From: a virus
Virus record (IMG/VR): IMGVR_UViG_3300017950_000002
Location: 1-36,988 of that record
DNA: 36,988 nt
Reading direction: 5' to 3' (one strand)
Shown: in pieces, positions 1-30,175 of the stretch
Layout of the letters: each line of letters opens with the position of its first letter
Position numbering within the stretch: the first letter of the stretch is position 1
Program-made: the position numbers and the translations under genes
The notes under the pieces: generated by a model
The model's input: only the letters and a program-made list of their open reading frames with translations
Databases searched by the model: none
What the model was told of the DNA's origin: nothing

Positions 1-123
1 CCCGTTCCACCTGAATCCTTTAAGCTGAGAAGAGTATTGCCTGTATTTGAGGCATTGTCTGCCGTAATCAGTGCGTTCGCAGAAGTAGTCCCAACCAGCA
101 AGTTGCCGCTGGAGTCGATACGC
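1..123. repeat. Direct terminal repeat, left copy
   Basis: The first 123 bases are identical to the last 123 bases of the window, read by eye base for base. An exact overlap of this size is what an assembler leaves when it closes a circular or circularly permuted genome. The unit genome would then be 36,865 bp. The repeat lies inside the tail-fibre coding region and joins its two halves in frame, which argues for an assembly overlap rather than a physical end repeat. A true short direct terminal repeat, as in T7-like phages, cannot be excluded from sequence alone. Confidence 0.95.
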
Positions 124-2234
124 ATACGTTCTGCTGAACTTGTCCAAAGCCGCAAAGAGTTATCATTGTTTGAATAACGTATTAAGCCTGCGTATTCACC
201 TACACCTGTACCATCTCCCATATAAATAGAAGCAGTACCAGTGGTGGTTGTTTGCAAAGAAATATCAGCCGTGGCACTGCTTCCGGGCGTTCCGATTTGA
301 AGATCGCGGCTAGGACTATTCGTACCAATACCAACGTTAGTACCACCAGAAGCATTGATAATAAGGTCTTGATTGGCTTGTATTTGTAAGTCTCGACCAC
401 CGTTCTGGGTAAATATCTTTGAAGTCCTTGTCCCATCAATGATGTTTATTTCTGTATTTGAGGAAGAAGAAAGAGTTAAAAGGGCAGTGGGACTCGTAGT
501 GCCAATACCAACTCTGCCGCCAGCTTGTACCGTAAAACGTTCTGATCCATCTCTAAGATCTCTAACAACAAATGAATCTAGGTCGCTGTTCGGGTCTATA
601 TCAATTCTAAGACTTCTGTTGCCCGGCCCTCTTATGGTTGCAAAATCATCACTACCAGCGTGGCGGATTCTCATAGAACCTACAACATCTAACGGGTAAC
701 CGGGACTATCCGTACCAATACCAACGTTGCCGCTGGCGTCGATACGCATACGTTCTGTGCTGTTGGTACTAACCGTTAGCGCATTAGATGCTTCAGACAA
801 AAATGGGCTGAATCCAGAAGATGATTCCAGATAAAACTTTCCTGATGGCTTGATAATGACGTTGCCAACGCCATCAATCCGCATACGCTCTACTAAAGAC
901 GTTGGGCCATAAGTGGTAAATGTTAAGGCGCTATAATTTCCGCTATATCTTACTCCTGTAATTTCACTTGTTCCTGCGGTAGCATAATTAACAGTGCTGT
1001 TTAAAAACTGTAGCTTTGCCCCTGAGCCAGCAGTTGCATCTCCATTTCGAAGTTGAATTACATTTGTAACAGCCCCTGCGTTTGTAGAAACTACTTCAAA
1101 CTTAGCATTGGCATTTGGAGAAGAAGTGCCAATGCCTACGCTACCAGAGCTATCAATACGCATACGTTCTGTGCCGTTGGTGCTAAACAACATGTCAGTG
1201 TTTTGGAAATTCCATAACTCTGCATTTTCTGAGCCATCTATGCCTACAGTGAAACCATTGCTGGCGCCAACACCAGTAGTGCTATTTGTATACTGAGTTT
1301 GAACACCCGTACTGTCGCTTTTACTTAAAACAAGAACACGTTGAGGACTGTCAGTGCCAATACCAACGTTGCCACTAGAGTCGATACGCATACGTTCGGC
1401 AGAGTTTGTTCTGAACCGCATACTATTGCCGCTTGTTGCATACCACAGCCCACCTGCGTCAGTTCCCGCAGAGTTTCTAAATTGTATCCTTGCATCCGCA
1501 GTTGCATTACTAGTACCAATATACAAATATGTGTCGGACGCTGAATTGATGTGGAAATTACCAGCAGGACTCGTAGTGCCAATACCAACATTGCCGCTGG
1601 AATTTACAGTTACCCTTGGATTATCTCCTCCGGTAGCTATAAACATACTGTCATTGCTGTGGTCGTAGTAAAGCTGACCAGCCCTCTGACCAGCGCCTGT
1701 TGTCGTATCTCCGAAATAAATACGCCCTTGGCTTGCAGTGCCTGAGTAAATAGTTACGCCGCTATTAGAAGATCCAGCACCAACAGATAAACTTTGACCT
1801 GTTTGAAACGTTTCCGTATTCCCAATACCAACATTGCCGTTCGGAATACTTACGTTCTGAGCGTTATCAATGGATATTGCAGTTGTACCAGTAGTCTGCA
1901 ACAGCATTGTCTCAGGGTTACTACTATGGTCGTACAGTATCTTGCCACGCGCACTAACATTGTCGCTAAATAATATTTCTGACGTTCCCCCAGCAGAGCC
2001 GTCACCTATTTCAATTTCGTGCGCTAAAGCAGTACCCGTGACATCAATGCCTGTATCGCTAACGGTCAGCTTTGTGCTTGTGGCGTTATCGTCGATGCCT
2101 GTGGAGGTGAACGACCCAAACGTAACGTCATCACCAGACTGATACTTGTCCGTATTCAGATTGGTGAAATTGGCGTCAACCTCATTGTGCGTGAGTGGAG
2201 AACCCTTACCCGATCTAGTAGTAATCGTACTCAT
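1..2234 (-). CDS. Tail fibre, N-terminal 744 codons (C-terminus continues at 36865-36508)
   Basis: The frame is open from the ATG at 2234 down to position 1 and continues across the circle junction to a stop at 36508, giving 863 residues. The protein is a long receptor-binding fibre built of repeated cycles ending in motifs such as ERMRIDSSGNVGIGT. About nine variants are visible (for example VNSSGNVGIGT, IDSSGSVGIGT, IDASGNVGIGT and QAGGRVGIGT), each followed by a TxSP-type turn and a new beta-rich stretch. This repeat type is common in trimeric phage fibres that end in an S74 intramolecular chaperone, which is present here in the distal part. The start overlaps the stop of the upstream fibre gene as TAATG, suggesting translational coupling. 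No full-length frame shows within the window because the contig break splits the gene. The receptor is unknown. Confidence 0.9.
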   Translation of the reverse strand, partial: MSTITTRSGKGSPLTHNEVDANFTNLNTDKYQSGDDVTFGSFTSTGIDDNATSTKLTVSDTGIDVTGTALAHEIEIGDGSAGGTSEILFSDNVSARGKILYDHSSNPETMLLQTTGTTAISIDNAQNVSIPNGNVGIGNTETFQTGQSLSVGAGSSNSGVTIYSGTASQGRIYFGDTTTGAGQRAGQLYYDHSNDSMFIATGGDNPRVTVNSSGNVGIGTTSPAGNFHINSASDTYLYIGTSNATADARIQFRNSAGTDAGGLWYATSGNSMRFRTNSAERMRIDSSGNVGIGTDSPQRVLVLSKSDSTGVQTQYTNSTTGVGASNGFTVGIDGSENAELWNFQNTDMLFSTNGTERMRIDSSGSVGIGTSSPNANAKFEVVSTNAGAVTNVIQLRNGDATAGSGAKLQFLNSTVNYATAGTSEITGVRYSGNYSALTFTTYGPTSLVERMRIDGVGNVIIKPSGKFYLESSSGFSPFLSEASNALTVSTNSTERMRIDASGNVGIGTDSPGYPLDVVGSMRIRHAGSDDFATIRGPGNRSLRIDIDPNSDLDSFVVRDLRDGSERFTVQAGGRVGIGTTSPTALLTLSSSSNTEINIIDGTRTSKIFTQNGGRDLQIQANQDLIINASGGTNVGIGTNSPSRDLQIGTPGSSATADISLQTTTTGTASIYMGDGTGVGEYAGLIRYSNNDNSLRLWTSSAERMRIDSSGNLLVGTTSANALITADNASNTGNTLLSLKDSGGT

Positions 2235-2647
2235 TAGCCTAATGTCACCTTCAGATTGCCAGCAGAAATACGCAATATATCGCCCGTACTGATCGTCTTC
2301 GGCAGCGCCGTCACAAAGTCAGCAGGATCAGTAAGCTCCGCCCATGCCAGCATATTCCCGGCAGAAGAGGCATCAAAAACCCCAGCATAGGTTACTGTAC
2401 CCCAAGAGCCAGTTGCCTCTGGAAACTCCACTGCGGCGCTGCTAGTGGCTGTTGTTGGGGATGTGCCAGACACCGTAAACGCCACAGACTGACGGGCATA
2501 TCCGTTCCCAGAAACCTCAGTACCCGGGCCAGTATCACTGGCTGCGCTGGTGAAAACGCCAACGTACAAGGTAGTCGGCGCAGTATATGAAGTCCCACCA
2601 AATACATGATTGAGAACCTTGTCCTCAAGGTAGTCTGAAAAGCTCAT
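2234..2647 (-). CDS. Small tail-fibre-family structural protein, 137 aa
   Basis: This 137-residue protein begins MSFSDYLEDKVLNHVFGG and continues with a TLYVGVFTSA segment, a YARQSVAF strand, a SWGTVTYAGVFD strand and a GDILRISAGNLKVTLG end. I recognise this as a widespread phage family usually annotated as tail fibre or tail-associated protein. It is Ser/Thr/Ala rich and beta-rich with no signal peptide. It lies between the adaptor array and the long fibre, overlapping both (ATGA upstream, TAATG downstream), so it is probably co-translated with them. A structural role at the tail tip is inferred; no enzymatic motif is visible. Confidence 0.75.
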   Translation of the reverse strand: MSFSDYLEDKVLNHVFGGTSYTAPTTLYVGVFTSAASDTGPGTEVSGNGYARQSVAFTVSGTSPTTATSSAAVEFPEATGSWGTVTYAGVFDASSAGNMLAWAELTDPADFVTALPKTISTGDILRISAGNLKVTLG

Positions 2648-4797
2648 CCTAATCCCCTAACTTTTAGCTGTAAGCCTGTGCCAGACTGCGAGGCGCTGGC
2701 TCCACTTTCATTTACGCGAGCCAACGCTGCGCTGTACAACTGCGCCCATGTTGCCGCTCTCTGGTCATCTTTAATGTACGGCGCTGCATGAAGAAGCGCA
2801 CCATACAAATAAACATCTGGGTGGCTTAGTAGCAACCAGTTGTCTGCATTGCTTCCGCTCAATGCAGGTATCTTCTGGTAATACAAAAGCTCTACCTCGT
2901 ATGTGCCGTCAGCGGTCGGAAAGACCTCAAATCCGCGCTCCGCATGACGGTAATATCTTGGCTCGCCGGTAGCGTTCTCAACACCCTGACGCTTATCTGC
3001 CATTGCCGCAGCAGATAACAGTTGTAAATTTCTGGTTCCGCCAGAAGTAATGTGCAGGCGTATCGTCTCTACCCAATCACTAGGGCGCTGCAGGTACTGC
3101 CCATCAACTTCAGCAGTAGCCCGATTTTCCATTTCAAAATGGCGGATATCACGACTCATTTGAGCCTCAGCCATCTCAATAAACTGAGGTATTATATCAT
3201 CCAAGTCGGGTCTATCTAACCAATCAGAAATTGCAAACTTCAGCCCGGTATAGGTATTAAGAGACGTATCCGTATCTGGTCGCCTAACTTCAAGCAGCGC
3301 AGATTCATATTTGCCCTGCCACACCAGCACCCTTTGGTCATCACCAAGGTATGGCGCGGCCTCAGACAAAGCGCCATGCAAATAAACATCAGGATGGTTA
3401 GTTAGCATCCAGTTCGTTGTGTTGCCAGTGGACAGCGTAGTGACATCTCTAAATCGCCGCTGCAGCCGAGCCTCAGCGAGCCGTATGAACTCTGGCACCG
3501 TCTCATCAAGATCCGGGCGATTTAACCAATCTGACACGGCGAACTTTAAGCCATCATAATTAGATAGATTAGAATCCGCGTCCGGCCTTCGCACCTCAGC
3601 AAATGCGGCCTCATACTTTGTCTGCCACAGTACGCTGCGCTCATCATTCCCAAGATACGGGGATGCTTCTGCGAGCGCCCCGAACAGATACACGTCAGGG
3701 TGATTGGTAAGAACCCAGTTAGTGGTGTTGCTGTCTGATAGTGCGTCAATATCCCGCACACGGCGCTTAATCCTAGCTTCTGCAAGCTGGATAAACTCAG
3801 GGATTATTTCGTCAATATCAGGGCGATTTAGCCAATCTGCAATAGCAGCCTTTAGACCCGCGTAATTATCTAAGCTGGTATCCGCGTCAGGGCGTCTAAC
3901 CTCCAACAAGGCAGCGTCATACTTCGCCTGCCATAACGGAATACGCTCATCATTGCCGATGTACGGAATAGCCTCTACCAATGACCCAAATAGGTATACA
4001 TCCGGGTGGTTGGTAAGCATCCAGTTGGTGGTTTCTACTGCCGTCAGCGGTGTAATGTCGCGTACCCGCCGCTTAATTCTAGCCTCAGCTAACTGAATAA
4101 AGTCAGGAATAGCATCGTCTAGGTCATACCGCTCTAACCAATCCGCTATCGCCGCCTTGAGTCCGTCATAGTCATCCAGATTAACACCAGACTTAGGCTT
4201 GCGAATCTTGCCGATCTCAGCCTCGTATAGCGTCCTCCAGACCTGTAACCGATCATCTTGCCCAAGATACGGCGAAGCCTCAGAGAGAGATGCGTATAGA
4301 TACAGATCAGGGTGATTCGTCAGAATCCAGTTCGTGGTGTTGCTTGCCGAGAGCGCCGTCATGCCATCAAACTTGCGGAATAGCTTGGCCTCACCCAGCT
4401 TAATCAACTGCGGCACAACGCCATCAAGGTCTGCCCGAGCAAGCCAATCTCCGACAGCCAGCTTCAAGCCGTCATAATCATCAAAATCCGCGTTCCCTAC
4501 CGTACCCCGCAACGTACCTACAGCGGCTGCATATAGCTGCGCCCATACGTTTACACGCTCGTCTTCTACAAGGTACGGAGACGCCTCCAATAGCGCGCCA
4601 TAGAGATAAACGTCAGGATAGCTGGTAAGTATCCAGTTGTTGGCATTTGACGCTGAGAGTGGGCTGAAGTCCTTGTAGCGCCGCTTTAGCTTCGCCTCAG
4701 TCAGAGAGATGAAGTCTGGTATGGCAGCGGTTAGGTCGCTACGGTTTAGATAGTCAGCGACCGACGCCTTTAACTCAGTATAGTTGGACAGTGCCAT
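2644..4797 (-). CDS. Head-tail adaptor homologue made of six tandem units, 717 aa
   Basis: The protein is almost entirely repeat. Units start near residues 5, 107, 209, 311, 413 and 515, with a period of exactly 102 residues (306 bp) for the first five. Each short unit has an N-terminal helical half (YxGLKxAIADWLxRxDLD, then IPxFIxLAEAxxxRRxRD) and a C-terminal half (NTTNWxLTNHPDVYLxGAL, EASPYLxxDxR, VWQxKYxAAL). The sixth unit, about 200 residues, carries an extra central beta-rich stretch (about 555-645) between the same halves. That layout matches single-copy adaptor/connector proteins of podoviruses (about 200 aa), which dock under the portal. The five upstream units look like copies lacking the core domain. 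They have diverged from one another, so they are not an assembly error. The ATG directly abuts the stop of the preceding gene. Confidence 0.75.
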   Translation of the reverse strand: MALSNYTELKASVADYLNRSDLTAAIPDFISLTEAKLKRRYKDFSPLSASNANNWILTSYPDVYLYGALLEASPYLVEDERVNVWAQLYAAAVGTLRGTVGNADFDDYDGLKLAVGDWLARADLDGVVPQLIKLGEAKLFRKFDGMTALSASNTTNWILTNHPDLYLYASLSEASPYLGQDDRLQVWRTLYEAEIGKIRKPKSGVNLDDYDGLKAAIADWLERYDLDDAIPDFIQLAEARIKRRVRDITPLTAVETTNWMLTNHPDVYLFGSLVEAIPYIGNDERIPLWQAKYDAALLEVRRPDADTSLDNYAGLKAAIADWLNRPDIDEIIPEFIQLAEARIKRRVRDIDALSDSNTTNWVLTNHPDVYLFGALAEASPYLGNDERSVLWQTKYEAAFAEVRRPDADSNLSNYDGLKFAVSDWLNRPDLDETVPEFIRLAEARLQRRFRDVTTLSTGNTTNWMLTNHPDVYLHGALSEAAPYLGDDQRVLVWQGKYESALLEVRRPDTDTSLNTYTGLKFAISDWLDRPDLDDIIPQFIEMAEAQMSRDIRHFEMENRATAEVDGQYLQRPSDWVETIRLHITSGGTRNLQLLSAAAMADKRQGVENATGEPRYYRHAERGFEVFPTADGTYEVELLYYQKIPALSGSNADNWLLLSHPDVYLYGALLHAAPYIKDDQRAATWAQLYSAALARVNESGASASQSGTGLQLKVRGLG
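3256..4785 (-). repeat. Five tandem 306-bp in-frame repeats in the adaptor gene
   Basis: Five consecutive 102-codon repeats encode residues 5-514 of the adaptor-like protein. The most conserved nucleotide stretch is the one coding for the NHPDVYL region, visible on the plus strand as variants of tanacatcngggtggttngt near 2810, 3390, 3695, 4000, 4310 and 4610. Units 2-5 are closer to one another than to unit 1 or to the final full-length unit, consistent with serial duplication of an already core-deleted unit. Confidence 0.9.
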
Positions 4798-4956: not shown

Positions 4957-5050
4957 GCTTCTTGGCCCTCTTCATCTTGGCCTTAGCCTTTGCTGCAGCG
5001 GCCTTACCTTTCTTGGTATATGCGTAGTGCTTTCCACCTACCTTTGGCAT
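4946..5050 (-). CDS. Very small basic protein, 34 aa
   Basis: The ATG at 5050 gives MPKVGGKHYAYTKKGKAAAA followed by alternating Lys/Ala and a KKRGK end, 34 residues in all. The MPKVGGKHYxYTKKG start is a recurrent phage micro-protein signature that I recall from related genomes. The ATG overlaps the stop of the upstream gene as TGATG, and the 3' end overlaps the next gene, making a tight three-gene run. Nearly half of the residues are Lys, Arg or Ala. Function is unknown; DNA condensation or a minor virion component would fit the charge. Confidence 0.65.
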   Translation of the reverse strand: MPKVGGKHYAYTKKGKAAAAKAKAKMKRAKKRGK

Positions 5051-5286
5051 CACTTGCTCCTTGACTTAGTACCAGAACATTTCCACCGCTTACGAGACAG
5101 CCGCAGCGGTGAGTTTGGATCTTTTGCAGCCTTTGGGTGGCTCTTCATCTGACCAGCCGATCTGGCGCAGTATGAGTCGCCCTTCTTTGTCCCGGGCTTC
5201 ACGCTTGCACCCTTCTGCCCGTAGCTGACCTTCTTGCCAGATGCGGTCTTTTTAACTTTTGCCTTGCCCTTTGCTGGCGTAGCCAT
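5050..5286 (-). CDS. Small basic protein resembling DUF6321, 78 aa
   Basis: The N-terminal 30 residues are Lys/Gly rich. The C-terminal half contains GDSYCARSAGQMKSHP, AAKDPNSPLRLSRKRWKCSG and two cysteines (in SYCARS and WKCSG). That half matches a small phage family I associate with DUF6321. A GAGG Shine-Dalgarno precedes the ATG with the six-base spacer TATAAT; this resembles a -10 box but sits where it would serve the ribosome, not this gene's promoter. The gene heads the run of three basic micro-proteins ahead of the adaptor-like gene. No function is established. Confidence 0.75.
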   Translation of the reverse strand: MATPAKGKAKVKKTASGKKVSYGQKGASVKPGTKKGDSYCARSAGQMKSHPKAAKDPNSPLRLSRKRWKCSGTKSRSK

Positions 5287-5314: not shown

Positions 5315-5491
5315 ATGAATGAATCAACACTCTCACAGAATGCACGAGATTGGATAGAGGCCATCTCTGTCAGCCCGCGCGATTGGGATAACGGCGTACT
5401 TGAAGCCATGCTGAACCACGACTGCGTAGCTGATGAAGAGAAGGCGTACATATTACGGCGTTATCGCTCCCTTCTTGATCAGTGCATCTAG
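5315..5491 (+). CDS. Lone plus-strand small acidic protein, 58 aa
   Basis: This is the only plausible plus-strand gene. From ATG 5315 it encodes 58 residues beginning MNESTLSQNARDWIEAI and ending RRYRSLLDQCI. It is acidic and probably helical, with a composition like a real soluble protein. It occupies a 166-bp stretch otherwise free of minus-strand coding and overlaps the 3' end of the 5453-7351 gene by 39 bp, tail to tail. AAGGG lies directly against the ATG, too close for normal initiation, and a TATACT box at 5303-5308 would place transcription start at or next to the ATG, so a leaderless message is possible. No family is recognised. Confidence 0.5.
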   Translation: MNESTLSQNARDWIEAISVSPRDWDNGVLEAMLNHDCVADEEKAYILRRYRSLLDQCI

Positions 5492-7351
5492 CGTAGCTTG
5501 GTCAAACTGACCAATCAGACCAGCCTGCATAGCCTTACCTACTGGCGATGGCCTTGTGAACGCACCGAGGTCATGACCCCTTCGCAGCATCTCTTCAACA
5601 AACGGCTGCTTAGATGCCCTGAAAAGCGGGTTTAAATCTTCCAGTAAGTTGATATCCCCGCCAAATTGACCAAGATACTGGCCCATGATGTCGGTGTTAT
5701 ATGACGGGTGGCGGCCTGCTTGCGGGGCGATGGTCAGATCCATAACGCCCGCCTGCCTTAGATTACCAACTCGCGGGTTCATTTGTTCGGCATCGACAAT
5801 CGCAGCCCTAGCTTGTGACAAGCTGATACCTGCCTCATCTCGGAACTCATCAATAGCCTTAGTGACAGCCTTGCGATCTCCGCCAGCGTTTGCCAGCCAC
5901 TCAGCGGCCTTGGGACTATCTAGACCGGGCCAATCCGGTTGCGGCTTCTTCTCGTTTTGCTTATTGCCTGCGCCTTCCCTTATTCTCTTGTCGAGGGACT
6001 TCTTCTGCGCCTTTGTCATGTTCTGGCGAGCCACCGGAACCATTATGTCCGCAGTCATTGTGGCAAAATCTGTGCTTGCCCCCGCCATCCCGTATGGAAT
6101 GTATATTGGCGACCTAGAGACACCGGGCAGCTCCATAGTGGACTTTCCTCCGCTTACCAGACCAGACACCACGTCTTTGTCAGATGCCCACAAGATGCCC
6201 CTCTCGGCATTATACGGCTGCCTCATGTAGTCCTGACCGCCAAACCGGACAACATCTACCGGCTGCCCGTTTATCATAACAATGCGCGACAGATCGCCTC
6301 GGCTGGTGTCTGACATACCAGAGACAAAACCTCGACCCTCAAGGTCAGCTGCGCTAATCCTTTGTGATGGGAGCAGCGTTACTCCGGGTTCTACATCTAG
6401 CGTCATGGCGTTGACCTCATCAACGTCACCAACACGCTGCAACAGCCCAGTATCCCTTGTTACGGGTGGCGCTTTCTCGGTTATGCCCATTGCGCTGTTA
6501 AATAACCCACGCCCAGCAGGGAACAGCCCCGCAGCAGCACCTAGCAGCCCCAACCCTACGCCTAGTGCGTCATCATTACGGTATGCGTCATAAGTCTCTG
6601 ATATGCCCTTAGCGGCACCCACAAAGGGCAAGAAGTCCATTCCCATTGAAATGTACTCTGCTACATCTCGGGCATCTTCTGTGCCACCCATAGCGTCTGT
6701 GAGGGCGTCAACCATCTTGTCGGTGAGTCCCTCATATCCGCCTTCTTGCTTGTCTGCCGTCGCGTTAGCAGCGCCGACCGCAGTATTAGCAACAGCACCC
6801 AGAAGGGATGGCCCGCCGCTAGAGCCTTCCGACAGCCCAAGAATGTTTGGGCCAGTGTAGTCAGGATCAAATGCAGCGGAGAAATAGGATCGGATGTCGC
6901 GGGGGTCAAATGTCACCCTGTCAGTGCCTGACTCAAGCCCTGTGATACCCTCTTCCCGTAAAGCCGGATAGATTGAAGGCAGATCACTTATTCTTGTTGA
7001 TGGATACCTATCAGCAACGTCACTGAGGTGGTCAACACCGCCTCGCAGCATAATCGGTATGACATTCTCACCGCCTCGCAAAGTGCCTTGCCCGCCCTGC
7101 GGATAACCTGACGCAACGGATGGGTTTGATGAGCTATAGATGCCCGGGCCTTGCACACCTTCAGTGCTAGGCTGGAACTCTAGTATATCCGCCCGGGTGC
7201 CGTGATAGTGCTTGGCATTGAACCCCTGATCGGCAGCGCGAGACATACGGCTGGCAGTGTCCATCGGCAGCTCACCAGAAGCTATCTTCCGCGCCGTCTC
7301 TTCTGGATAGCCAGCCCTAACGAGGGTGGCAAAAGCGTCTAGTAATCCCAT
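5453..7351 (-). CDS. Large virion-type protein with N-terminal ADP-ribosyltransferase-like domain, 632 aa
   Basis: Residues about 47-163 carry an ART-fold pattern: YHGT at 49-52 (motif I His), GPGIYSSSNP at 68-77 with Tyr72 (motif II), a VIPIMLRGG strand, and FDPRDIRSYFSAAFDP at 148-163. The last motif is typical of ARTs in phage polyvalent proteins. A clear catalytic Glu of motif III is not obvious. Residues about 230-290 include a hydrophobic, Gly/Ala-rich stretch (FLPFVGAAKG, GVGLGLLGAAAGLFPAG). The C-terminal half is mixed alpha/beta with a Lys-rich linker near 450-470. It lies directly after terL and before the basic micro-proteins. Injection with the DNA to modify a host target is inference; a purely structural role is also possible. 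Confidence 0.6.
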   Translation of the reverse strand: MGLLDAFATLVRAGYPEETARKIASGELPMDTASRMSRAADQGFNAKHYHGTRADILEFQPSTEGVQGPGIYSSSNPSVASGYPQGGQGTLRGGENVIPIMLRGGVDHLSDVADRYPSTRISDLPSIYPALREEGITGLESGTDRVTFDPRDIRSYFSAAFDPDYTGPNILGLSEGSSGGPSLLGAVANTAVGAANATADKQEGGYEGLTDKMVDALTDAMGGTEDARDVAEYISMGMDFLPFVGAAKGISETYDAYRNDDALGVGLGLLGAAAGLFPAGRGLFNSAMGITEKAPPVTRDTGLLQRVGDVDEVNAMTLDVEPGVTLLPSQRISAADLEGRGFVSGMSDTSRGDLSRIVMINGQPVDVVRFGGQDYMRQPYNAERGILWASDKDVVSGLVSGGKSTMELPGVSRSPIYIPYGMAGASTDFATMTADIMVPVARQNMTKAQKKSLDKRIREGAGNKQNEKKPQPDWPGLDSPKAAEWLANAGGDRKAVTKAIDEFRDEAGISLSQARAAIVDAEQMNPRVGNLRQAGVMDLTIAPQAGRHPSYNTDIMGQYLGQFGGDINLLEDLNPLFRASKQPFVEEMLRRGHDLGAFTRPSPVGKAMQAGLIGQFDQATLDALIKKGAITP

Positions 7352-7365
7352 CCCCCATTATACCA

Positions 7366-8646
7366 TCAAGCAATGCCGCGTAGGTTACGGCGGATAGGAT
7401 CACCCCAGTTGGATGTTTTCTTGTATCCCACCGCGAGATATCTAAATGCGTCTGCTGAGTGACTAGACCAATCGTGCGATGGCCTGCCCTTCCACACCCT
7501 GTTGTTATCATCATACTCTCGGTGATATGCCCGCAACGCATCAACACCGTGGGCGCACTTCTCAGCATCAAACCAGCACGTTGCCAACAGCGACCGTGAC
7601 GCTTGTATCCCATCATCTACGTTCAACTGCGGCGCTATCTGAATGTTGTTCAGCCCGAGAGACTGCAGCGTCTCTAGCCGGGACTTGCCCGACCCTAGCT
7701 CCCTCACCCTAACGTCATGCGGCAGGATATGCTGGTCGTATATGTAGCCCTTTTGCTGCAACACCCTAACGTAATGATCTAGGCCGACCCCGGACGCCTC
7801 ATAGTGGTCGATCAGGCGTGTCTCAGGGCCAATCATCTGGGCAAACCAGATTGCCGTCGTATCGCCTATCCCCAAGTCCCATGCGGTGATAACCGGCGAG
7901 ATAGTCTCATACGGTACGGCTGTGATCCTTCCCTGAGCGTTAGCGTCACGCATCTCCAGCGAGTAATACGCACCCTCATGGTGGGTCAGGAACGCTCCCT
8001 CCCAGATATGATCGTAGTTGTCTGGGCGCTTTTCAAAGTCATTGCGCCGGACTAGATCCAGCACCTTGGGGAAGTACGGATTGTCACGCCAGTTGATTTC
8101 CACAATCTTGCTGCTCTCTGGCGGGTCTTGCCGGAACCGCTTATGCGTAGCGGATAGGTTACTCTCCGGGTTCCACGATACCCATAGCTCAGAGCCTTCC
8201 TCGCGTATTGTGGGGTCTAGTTTGTCCCACGCTACAGAAGATACTGTTTCTGCCTCATCGACCCAGCAAAGAAGAATGCGAGCCTTAGACTTGATGCTGT
8301 CTAGGTTCCTACGCAATCCCGCAAAGGTGAACTCAATGTTGCCGTCCCGGGAGCGGATGTATCGCTCGCCAACCTCATAATACTCTGCCAGCCAATCGTA
8401 GGTCTTAATGGCCCCGGCAATCTCCTCAAACGAGCTATCAGAGAGGCTGTTCATGAACTCCCGGGCGCATAGTATCTGCCCAGAACGCCCCTCTTGGCCC
8501 CACATATAGCCCCTGACACAAGCCATGATTGCAAACGATCGGCTTTTGCCTGAGCCACGGCCTCCGTAAGCGCAGCGATAGCGCGCTTCACCACTGAATA
8601 ATTCTATCAGCTTCGGGGGTAGCTCAATCGTCGCTATATTGGTCAT
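7366..8646 (-). CDS. terL: Terminase large subunit, 426 aa
   Basis: This is the DNA-packaging motor ATPase/nuclease, acting at the portal of the procapsid. The Walker A motif GGRGSGKS lies at 28-35 and the Walker B motif WVDEAE at 128-133. The C-terminal RNase H-like nuclease carries acidic motifs AWDLGIGD (255-262), HDV (310-312) and HSADAFR (396-402). The length is usual for the Terminase_3/PBSX-like group. It overlaps the small-subunit candidate upstream by 23 bp, the normal TerS-TerL order. I did not attempt to assign the headful versus cohesive-end mechanism from the sequence. Confidence 0.95.
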   Translation of the reverse strand: MTNIATIELPPKLIELFSGEARYRCAYGGRGSGKSRSFAIMACVRGYMWGQEGRSGQILCAREFMNSLSDSSFEEIAGAIKTYDWLAEYYEVGERYIRSRDGNIEFTFAGLRRNLDSIKSKARILLCWVDEAETVSSVAWDKLDPTIREEGSELWVSWNPESNLSATHKRFRQDPPESSKIVEINWRDNPYFPKVLDLVRRNDFEKRPDNYDHIWEGAFLTHHEGAYYSLEMRDANAQGRITAVPYETISPVITAWDLGIGDTTAIWFAQMIGPETRLIDHYEASGVGLDHYVRVLQQKGYIYDQHILPHDVRVRELGSGKSRLETLQSLGLNNIQIAPQLNVDDGIQASRSLLATCWFDAEKCAHGVDALRAYHREYDDNNRVWKGRPSHDWSSHSADAFRYLAVGYKKTSNWGDPIRRNLRGIA

Positions 8647-28316: not shown

Positions 28317-28754
28317 CTAAAAAACTGACTTAAAAGTTGAAAGCATTTTTAGCAACCCCGGCAAAGCTCCAAAGTTATCCTCATTAAATCCGCCATTGCC
28401 CTGCGACATCATATCCTGCGCGGTCATACCCATATTGGGAATAGAGCCGCCTAGTAGCTCTGGCCTGCCTTGGAAGCCTCCCTGCATATTGTTGCCGCCG
28501 ATAGCGCCAACCAATCTCATGACTTGATCGAACGTGTCTGGAGATGCGTCAACAAGCTCAGGCATTGCTGGGGACATCTGTGGTGCTGGCTGAGAAAAAG
28601 GGCCGCCAGTGTCAACCGGAGACATAAGAGGCTGGTCAGCCATCTGCAATGCTTGACCAGCAGCCATCTCTTGCCTTTTAGCCAAGCTATCTCGGATGCC
28701 GCCCTTTTCCATGCCCATCTCTATTAGCTTCATGAGTCCCATTGCTGGCGTCAT
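28317..28754 (-). CDS. Hypothetical structural-region protein, 145 aa
   Basis: It begins MTPAMGLMKLIEMGMEKGGI and has a Met/Pro/Gly-rich, low-complexity middle (PQMSPAMPELVDASPDTFDQ) and a GALPGLLKMLSTFKSVF end. It lacks recognisable domains. The ATG overlaps the stop of the S74 protein as ATGA. It may be a virion component co-produced with its neighbours. Confidence 0.55.
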   Translation of the reverse strand: MTPAMGLMKLIEMGMEKGGIRDSLAKRQEMAAGQALQMADQPLMSPVDTGGPFSQPAPQMSPAMPELVDASPDTFDQVMRLVGAIGGNNMQGGFQGRPELLGGSIPNMGMTAQDMMSQGNGGFNEDNFGALPGLLKMLSTFKSVF

Positions 28755-30175
28755 GATATGCCTCCATAGTTCACGCGGTAGTAACCATCAGGGAACTGAA
28801 TAACAAGATCCGGTCTGGTCTGCATGACATCTTGAGCAAGTACGCCCATATCTGAGCCAGTTTTTCCAAGAACAAACTTGGCCTGCTTCTTCCAATCCCA
28901 CGCATACAAGTTGTAACCGCCCGGGGTCTTGCCAACCCTACGGATATTTTTCTTTAACCTAACGTCAGAGCCAAGCAGCATAGACGCCCAGCCAAACAAA
29001 CCCGGATCGCTAGTTGTGGTCTGAGACTGCGGAGCCTGAGTGACGCCCAAAGCCTGAGCCAGATAGCCGAGAGCAGTTCCGGGCTGCCCTTGATAAGCGC
29101 CATACTGTCCTTTTGCCGCGTCCATAAGGTTTTGCTGAAGCATCTGTTGCAGTAGACCCTGCTGCTGCATACCCTGCAAGGCAGATTGCGCCTGAGTAAA
29201 TCCGAGGTTTCCGAGGTTAGCTAGTTGCTGACCAGCGCCCAATCTCATGCCAGCGCCCTGTAATCCAGCCGCCTGATTAGCGAGATTGGCTTGCAACTCC
29301 TGCTGCCTAAAGCCGCTTCTAGCCGCATTGATCGCAGCCTGATTCGCCAGTGAAGCCTGCAAGCCTGCCTGCTGATTAGCCATGCCTGCTTGAAATCCGG
29401 TTGCCTGATTCGCCAGAGCGGCTTGTAGCGCCTGCTGAGCGTTAAGCTGACCCGCCTGTTGACGCCTTGCAACATCCTGCTGTGCAAGCTGTGCAGCCGT
29501 TGTGAAGCCTTGCTGCCTCAGTTGACCACCCGTCCTCGCTTGCTGCTCTAACGCATTGCGGGCTATCTCAGCCTCCATAAGAGCGCCCCTTGAGCCACCA
29601 AACGCGCCAGCGGCTTGTGCCTGTGCAGCCGCCTGATTTGCCTGCATTAAGCGATTGCGCTCAATATCAGCCATAGATTGATCTATGACCTCAGTAGTGT
29701 AGGGGTTATAGAATCGCTCTATGTCTGCTTGCGTAGTTTGTGCCGCCTCCATGCCGGGGGAGGAAACGCGCTCAAACCCAAGATTAAAATCTGCACCAAT
29801 CCTAGATGGGTCATACCGGGTGGCAGACACATTCATAGGCTGATAACCCATGATGTCTCTTGCCCCTCCCATAGCGTCATATATGCTTTGGGATGCAGCT
29901 TGAAACATATTAGGTGTGCCAGTGGTTTGCCCAGCGGCTGGTGAAGTAGGCACAGGCGTCCTGCCGCCAGTTTCATTTGGAATAATTGCAGGCTGAACAG
30001 TTCCTTGAGCTACAGCAAATCCTTGACCTGTTGTGTCTGCTGGCGGCGGATTCACAACCCCGCCCCCTTTCCCGCCAATAGACCCAAGTTTATAAGGGCC
30101 TTGCGGCAGCTGACCCTCTGGGGGCATGGCTGGAATTGATCCCGGAGCGCGCATATTGCCTACTGAGCCGCCCAT
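28751..30175 (-). CDS. Structural protein with Ala/Gln helix and C-terminal S74-type domain, 474 aa
   Basis: Residues 1-110 are Pro/Gly-rich. Residues about 150-340 are a long Ala/Gln helix with repeated LANQAxGLQA-type units. The C-terminus from residue 403 (SDVRLKKNIRRVGKTPGGYN, then LYAWDWKK and MGVLAQDV) is an S74 intramolecular chaperone with the Ser-Asp cleavage dyad. It stops at YYRVNYGGIS and so lacks the C-terminal helix usually found in S74 domains. Autocleavage after trimer folding is expected by family. It could be a tail-needle-like or other trimeric component. Confidence 0.7.
   Translation of the reverse strand: MGGSVGNMRAPGSIPAMPPEGQLPQGPYKLGSIGGKGGGVVNPPPADTTGQGFAVAQGTVQPAIIPNETGGRTPVPTSPAAGQTTGTPNMFQAASQSIYDAMGGARDIMGYQPMNVSATRYDPSRIGADFNLGFERVSSPGMEAAQTTQADIERFYNPYTTEVIDQSMADIERNRLMQANQAAAQAQAAGAFGGSRGALMEAEIARNALEQQARTGGQLRQQGFTTAAQLAQQDVARRQQAGQLNAQQALQAALANQATGFQAGMANQQAGLQASLANQAAINAARSGFRQQELQANLANQAAGLQGAGMRLGAGQQLANLGNLGFTQAQSALQGMQQQGLLQQMLQQNLMDAAKGQYGAYQGQPGTALGYLAQALGVTQAPQSQTTTSDPGLFGWASMLLGSDVRLKKNIRRVGKTPGGYNLYAWDWKKQAKFVLGKTGSDMGVLAQDVMQTRPDLVIQFPDGYYRVNYGGIS

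What the first reader, a model, noticed from the sequence alone, without database searches (positions are those of the whole stretch)
5453..7351. ADP-ribosyltransferase-like domain on a probable virion protein
YHGT (49-52), GPGIY (68-72) and FDPRDIRS...AAFDP (148-163) reproduce the ART motifs of phage polyvalent proteins. The rest has hydrophobic segments like an internal virion protein. An enzyme delivered with the DNA and modifying host proteins or nucleic acid would parallel T4 Alt, but from an unrelated scaffold. The usual catalytic Glu is not evident.
Basis: partly seen in the sequence, partly recalled or inferred. Interest (0 to 1): 0.7.

Follow-up and report, generated by a model that had tools for sequence, protein, structure and literature searches.

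The report
Swappable ADP-ribosyltransferase module in phage protein
A short-tailed, probably marine phage carries, between its DNA-packaging and tail-adaptor genes, a protein with a PARP/toxin-like ADP-ribosyltransferase domain, and near-identical phages replace just that enzyme core (or just the rest of the protein) at fixed breakpoints, which suggests an injected weapon under rapid renewal.

Summary
The motifs are real. The gene is on the minus strand (5453-7351, 632 aa). Residues 42-158 form an ART fold. A domain-only AlphaFold model matches only ARTs among 50 listed PDB rows: ParT, MbcT, RES, tankyrases, diphtheria toxin and a cyanophage A4 pre-ejectosome protein. His50 and Tyr72 are invariant in 38 aligned modules. 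The 'missing' Glu is explained: the slot four residues before Phe148 is Glu in 32 of 48 modules, Asp in 7 and Gln in 1. The window has Asp144, which fits the H-Y-[EDQ] ART clade. The closest Pfam family is ART-PolyVal (E=2e-5, below its cut-off). T4 Alt belongs to a different clade (R-S-E). About 70 relatives keep the order TerL - this gene - adaptor, but near-identical phages swap either the ART core (YHGT to FDP) or everything after the 'FDPRDIRS..AAFDPDYTGPNIL' junction, with flanks about 85-98% identical. ART types are under purifying selection (dN/dS 0.02-0.06). Best explanation: a divergent polyvalent-type effector, packaged and injected, that ADP-ribosylates host targets. Fold and exchange are shown here; virion packaging, injection, activity and target are inferred. 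'Hydrophobic segments' are weak support.

The parts
5453..7351 (-). Whole gene, 632 aa (P0001): N-terminal ART module, variable middle, conserved C-terminal domain
   Evidence: 123 relatives reported in IMG/VR, 80 kept
7223..7351 (-). Residues 1-43: N-terminal helices with conserved 'G(E/D)LPMDxASRxxRA' lead-in; conserved flank upstream of the exchanged core
   Evidence: 97% nt identity with L046 up to window 7222; helices H3-12, H17-25, H32-41
6914..7222 (-). Residues 44-146: exchangeable ART catalytic core (YHGT to just before FDP)
   Evidence: No nt similarity between window and L046/L047 here although flanks are 97-100% identical; same core-only swap in L063/L075, L063/L082, L041/L043; ART fold
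7202..7204 (-). His50 (first ART motif, YHGT)
   Evidence: invariant in 38 aligned modules
7136..7138 (-). Tyr72 (second ART motif, GPGIY)
   Evidence: invariant in 38 aligned modules
6920..6922 (-). Asp144: slot of the catalytic Glu (third residue of H-Y-[EDQ])
   Evidence: Glu in 32, Asp in 7, Gln in 1 of 48 modules; structural register puts it opposite TNKS2 E1138 / TNKS1 E1291 if the last 13 positions are ungapped (inference)
6905..6907 (-). Asp149 (FDP): near-invariant Asp just after the same strand; alternative candidate for the third residue
   Evidence: conservation; Iyer 2017 describes an Asp in strand 5 (PMC5512222)
6839..6913 (-). Residues 147-171, FDPRDIRSYFSAAFDPDYTGPNIL: last ART elements and module junction (recombination island)
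   Evidence: about 75 nt 100% identical in L046/L047 between two unrelated stretches; a junction match in nearly all relatives that reach it
6401..6838 (-). Residues 172-317: low-confidence middle region with the one borderline hydrophobic window; replaced by other modules in relatives
   Evidence: pLDDT <50 at 167-291; LPD23/peptidase-like, RelA/SpoT-like or second ART modules in some relatives
5456..6400 (-). Residues 318-632: conserved C-terminal domain, also in phages without a canonical ART (C72C1 CDS0023, CRP-902 gp72)
   Evidence: weak YTH-like fold resemblance only
7366..8646 (-). Terminase large subunit, directly upstream in the transcribed direction
   Evidence: PF04466 E=1e-25; conserved neighbour
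5050..5286 (-). 78-aa Lys-rich basic ORF between this gene and the adaptor; its DNA stays conserved when the ART core is swapped, so it is not a cognate immunity gene
2644..4797 (-). SU10-type adaptor gene, next conserved neighbour
   Evidence: PF24175 E=1e-100

Best explanation
A modular, polyvalent-type effector of a short-tailed phage. Step 1 (inferred): the protein is made late with terminase, adaptor and head proteins and is packaged inside the virion. Step 2 (inferred): it is ejected with or ahead of the genome. Step 3 (fold shown, activity inferred): its N-terminal H-Y-[EDQ] ART domain (His50, Tyr72, Asp144 and/or Asp149) binds NAD+ and transfers ADP-ribose to a host protein or nucleic acid early in infection, favouring takeover or blocking defence. 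Step 4 (shown): the ART core is exchanged as a cassette between otherwise near-identical phages, with breakpoints at the YHGT region and at the FDP..NIL junction, and the C-terminal part is exchanged independently, so the phage lineage holds many ART types at one locus.
For: ART profile hit and in 44 of 54 relatives; ART-only fold matches, including a cyanophage pre-ejectosome protein with Foldseek prob 1.00; BFVD matches named PolyVal ADP-ribosyltransferase; H and Y invariant, third slot E/D/Q in 40 of 48; purifying selection within ART types, dN/dS 0.02-0.06; fixed TerL-gene-adaptor-head order; cassette swaps in at least six comparisons; 21 ART x 16 C-terminal types in free combination; some relatives carry a second ART or LPD23/peptidase-like modules, the architecture of polyvalent proteins. 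Literature: phage ARTs near terminase/head genes are thought to be packaged (PMC9503650).
Against: No virion proteomics for any member; no enzymatic data. The window protein and the N-terminal modules of the relatives examined one by one score below the curated ART-PolyVal cut-off. The usual Glu is Asp here. Near relative L006 (92% identical) lacks the segment holding residue 144 in the only contig seen. The DNA-ejection protein recognised in the window lies elsewhere, at 28751-30175.
Confidence: 0.55

Rival explanations
1. The ART domain is catalytically weak or dead and the protein is mainly an internal or structural virion protein whose ART fold serves binding or packing.
For: Asp instead of Glu at 144; L006 lacks the third motif; some ART types have Phe for Tyr or no GxGxY (L014, L036).
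Against: His50 and Tyr72 invariant in 38 aligned modules; E/D/Q kept in 40 of 48; strong purifying selection within types; gene absent at this place in related podophages such as Sulfitobacter pCB2047-C, so not a core structural part.
Confidence: 0.17
2. The domain is an NAD+-consuming enzyme (NADase or NAD+ phosphorylase like MbcT/RES) rather than a macromolecule-modifying ART; it would drain host NAD+ or remove NAD-derived signals.
For: The best structural neighbours include MbcT, RES and ParT, and the H-Y-[EDQ] group includes NADases/phosphorylases (PMC9503650).
Against: PARPs and diphtheria toxin match nearly as well (Z differences of 1-1.5); NAD depletion seems costly for a phage at entry; many ART types fit target-specific modification better.
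Confidence: 0.13
3. The protein is not injected but acts in the producing cell, e.g. against co-infecting phages or to counter host defence aimed at the packaging machinery.
For: Late-gene location next to terminase; PMC9503650 raises the same alternative; no virion proteomics.
Against: ART domain in a cyanophage pre-ejectosome structure; C-terminal fusion to a domain shared by large phage polyvalent proteins.
Confidence: 0.15

Closest known systems
ART-PolyVal (PF18760) / Tox-ART-HYD2 and N4-like ART families of phage polyvalent proteins
   Same: H (strand 1), Y (strand 2), acidic third residue; multi-domain phage protein beside head/packaging genes; sometimes several ARTs per protein
   Different: Scores below the Pfam cut-off; N-terminal position with a fixed 'PMDxASR' lead-in and 'FDPxxIRS..AAFDPxYxGxNIL' junction; core swapped as a cassette
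Cyanophage A4 pre-ejectosome protein (PDB 9k3a chain B)
   Same: ART-like domain within a protein of a podophage pre-ejectosome (Z 7.8, 118 aligned)
   Different: No detectable sequence similarity; much larger protein
T4 Alt
   Same: Works-like comparison: ART packaged in the head and injected with DNA (literature)
   Different: Alt is R-S-E clade; this is H-Y-[EDQ], with no shared motifs
ParT / MbcT / RES toxin ARTs
   Same: Closest single-domain folds (Z 7-8)
   Different: Those are toxin-antitoxin pairs; no swapped-along antitoxin candidate here

Membership tests
ART superfamily, H-Y-[EDQ] clade | ART fold | tested here: met
   Domain model pLDDT 78.6; all 50 listed VIA rows are ARTs, top Z 8.0; best Foldseek E 3.7e-3, prob 1.00
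ART superfamily, H-Y-[EDQ] clade | His and Tyr of the first two motifs | tested here: met
   H50, Y72 invariant in 38 modules
ART superfamily, H-Y-[EDQ] clade | Third residue E, D or Q | tested here: met
   Asp144 in the window; E/D/Q in 40 of 48; Asp149 is the alternative
ART superfamily, H-Y-[EDQ] clade | NAD+-dependent activity | not testable with these tools
   needs an assay
ART-PolyVal (PF18760) | Curated profile score | tested here: inconclusive
   25.8 bits, E=2e-5, cut-off 31.2; 44 of 54 relatives hit; those shown above cut-off (L041, L082) are so through their second ART modules
Polyvalent proteins (Iyer 2017) | Several effector domains in one polypeptide, near virion genes | tested here: met
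   Relatives with two ARTs, LPD23, peptidase-like or RelA/SpoT-like parts; TerL/adaptor context. The window copy itself has one recognised enzyme domain
Polyvalent proteins (Iyer 2017) | Packaged in virion and injected | not testable with these tools
   no proteomics found
T4 Alt/VIP2 (R-S-E clade) | Arg-Ser-Glu active site | tested here: not met
   H-Y-[EDQ] motifs instead

The most novel reading that the evidence does not exclude
One phage locus works as an exchangeable effector slot: two fixed breakpoints, inside conserved coding sequence, let phages swap ART warheads and C-terminal parts independently while the rest of the genome stays nearly identical, a phage counterpart of polymorphic-toxin tip exchange without cognate immunity genes.
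Probability: 0.45. Interest if true: 0.65.

Novelty: new variant of a known kind. Interest (0 to 1): 0.5.

Why it matters
It shows where in a small podophage an early host-takeover enzyme probably sits and how fast it is replaced, gives a natural set of about 20 ART types on one delivery protein to test for target specificity, and offers an isolate (Octadecabacter Antarctic DB virus 2) in which virion packaging can be checked.

Tried and rejected
Glu140 as the catalytic residue: not at the conserved slot; the F-4 position is. C-terminal domain as a YTH (modified-base reader) domain: best Z 7.9 lies within the tool's stated background, and a profile of 33 sequences finds no YTH in Pfam or PDB sequences; kept as a weak lead. 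Toxin-immunity pair: the small downstream ORF is conserved when the ART core changes, so it is not specific immunity. Bacterial or plasmid relatives: none in genome contigs (two scans) or plasmids. Sequence relatives in PDB: none. Virion mass spectrometry for the DB virus 2 relative: term not found in the main text of its paper. A paper on the A4 pre-ejectosome was not found. Assembly chimeras as the cause of the swaps: unlikely, since L046 and L047 come from different samples with the same swap and several independent pairs share the breakpoints. Global alignment values for the post-junction part were unreliable and replaced by blastn.

Full report
OBSERVATION. The ORF at 5453-7351 is on the minus strand and encodes 632 aa. 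The ordered pattern is absent from 1446 unrelated ORFs and 20,000 shuffles and present in 61 of 69 homologous ORFs. Pfam ART-PolyVal matches residues 42-90 with E=2e-5, 25.8 bits, under the curated 31.2.

SETTING. The window is a 36,988-base virus record with an SU10-type portal, SU10-type adaptor, scaffold, major head protein and terminase. An overlapping contig joins the window's two ends (L002), so the record is probably complete. Terminase relatives among isolates are Paracoccus, Microcystis, Rhizobium and Sulfitobacter phages, and an Octadecabacter phage holds an ART relative, so an alphaproteobacterial host is likely (inference). Across nearly all relatives with enough flank the order is TerL - this gene - adaptor - head protein. 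In Sulfitobacter pCB2047-C terminase is followed directly by portal, and in Paracoccus KLEP18-1 by two small ORFs and portal, so the gene is accessory.

FOLD AND ACTIVE SITE. A model of residues 1-171 built with 38 window and relative sequences has pLDDT 78.6. Foldseek's top PDB match is a cyanophage A4 pre-ejectosome protein (E 3.7e-3, prob 1.00), followed by tankyrases, PARP13, PARP14, diphtheria toxin and ParT. In the VIA second look all 50 rows are ARTs (Z 6.3-8.0). Z values are moderate, but no unrelated fold appears among the rows. His50 and Tyr72 are invariant in the 38 modules (these were chosen as canonical modules, so divergent ART types with FHGG and GFF, such as L014, are outside this count). 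Four residues before the Phe of FDP the residue is Glu in 32, Asp in 7 and Gln in 1 of 48 modules. The window has Asp144. The end of the aligned ranges puts residue 144 opposite TNKS2 E1138 and TNKS1 E1291 (catalytic residue numbers from my own knowledge; assumes no gap in the last 13 positions). The clade is defined as H-Y-[EDQ] (PMC9503650), and Iyer et al. give H, Y and an Asp in strand 5 for polyvalent-protein ARTs (PMC5512222); Asp149 is therefore a second candidate.

RELATIVES AND MODULES. An alignment search reported 123 relatives in IMG/VR, of which 80 loci were kept; 44 of 54 sampled proteins hit ART-PolyVal. Some have two ART modules in tandem (L082, L092), a second ART near the C-terminus (L041), LPD23 plus peptidase-like parts (L059, L062), or a RelA/SpoT-like end (L055, weak). 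A hydrophobic linker ending in 'LLAAPEEAEAG' or a close variant follows the ART module in many relatives and separates modules in some. Phages C72C1 and CRP-902 share the C-terminal part but show no canonical ART motifs there.

CASSETTE EXCHANGE. Window against L046 or L047: 97% nt identity through terminase and codons 1-43, no similarity in codons 44-146, 75 identical nucleotides at the junction, no similarity to the gene end, then 92% again in L046. Core-only swaps: L063/L075 (94.9% before, 89.7% after), L063/L082 (84.5%, 86.1%), L041/L043 (93.1%, 87.2%). Swaps of the part after the junction: L028/L067 and L028/L070 (98% up to the junction, nothing to the gene end, 95-99% after). At 60% identity there are 21 ART types and 16 C-terminal types; ART types 0 and 3 each occur with five C-terminal types (some C-termini are truncated by contig ends, so the 16 is an upper estimate). 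Within ART types dN/dS is 0.02-0.06, so each type is maintained by selection while types are exchanged. The small ORF downstream stays constant, so there is no sign of matched immunity.

MECHANISM. Most likely: made late, packaged, ejected, then ADP-ribosylation of a host target. Shown: fold, conserved active site, gene order, exchange. Inferred: packaging, injection, catalysis, target. Rivals: dead or structural ART, NAD+ consumer, action in the producing cell.

COMPARISON. It works like T4 Alt in outline but belongs to another ART clade; by architecture and context it is a divergent relative of polyvalent-protein ARTs. The combination of a conserved delivery context with exchange of the enzyme core at fixed breakpoints was not described in the passages I read.

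Noticed in passing
window 2644-4797 (-): The SU10-type adaptor gene encodes 717 aa with five extra ~102-aa partial copies of the adaptor core before a full copy; a near-identical phage (L023) has four copies in all, other relatives one 206-207-aa copy. Copy number seems to vary between close phages.
   Followed up: partly
window 82-1600: Several 31-53 bp direct repeats, 81-97% alike, seen as off-diagonal matches to L002, L004, L005 and L006.
   Followed up: no
window 5456-6400 (-): The conserved C-terminal domain (LEGR..GG..FM..WAS..DFATM) has no Pfam family; its model weakly resembles YTH domains (Z 7.9).
   Followed up: partly
L018:2752-4233: Octadecabacter Antarctic DB virus 2 gp6 carries its ART domain in the C-terminal half; its N-terminal half has a 'DGRHRAIAA' ParB-like stretch, and one of the 54 proteins scanned hit the ParB C-terminal PHROG (member not identified by that output).
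   Followed up: partly
L055:5798-7630: Relative whose C-terminal part is replaced by a RelA/SpoT-like sequence (Pfam E=0.016).
   Followed up: no
L006:3086-4945: 92% identical relative with an in-frame loss of about 13 codons covering the third ART motif; a natural loss of activity or an assembly error.
   Followed up: no
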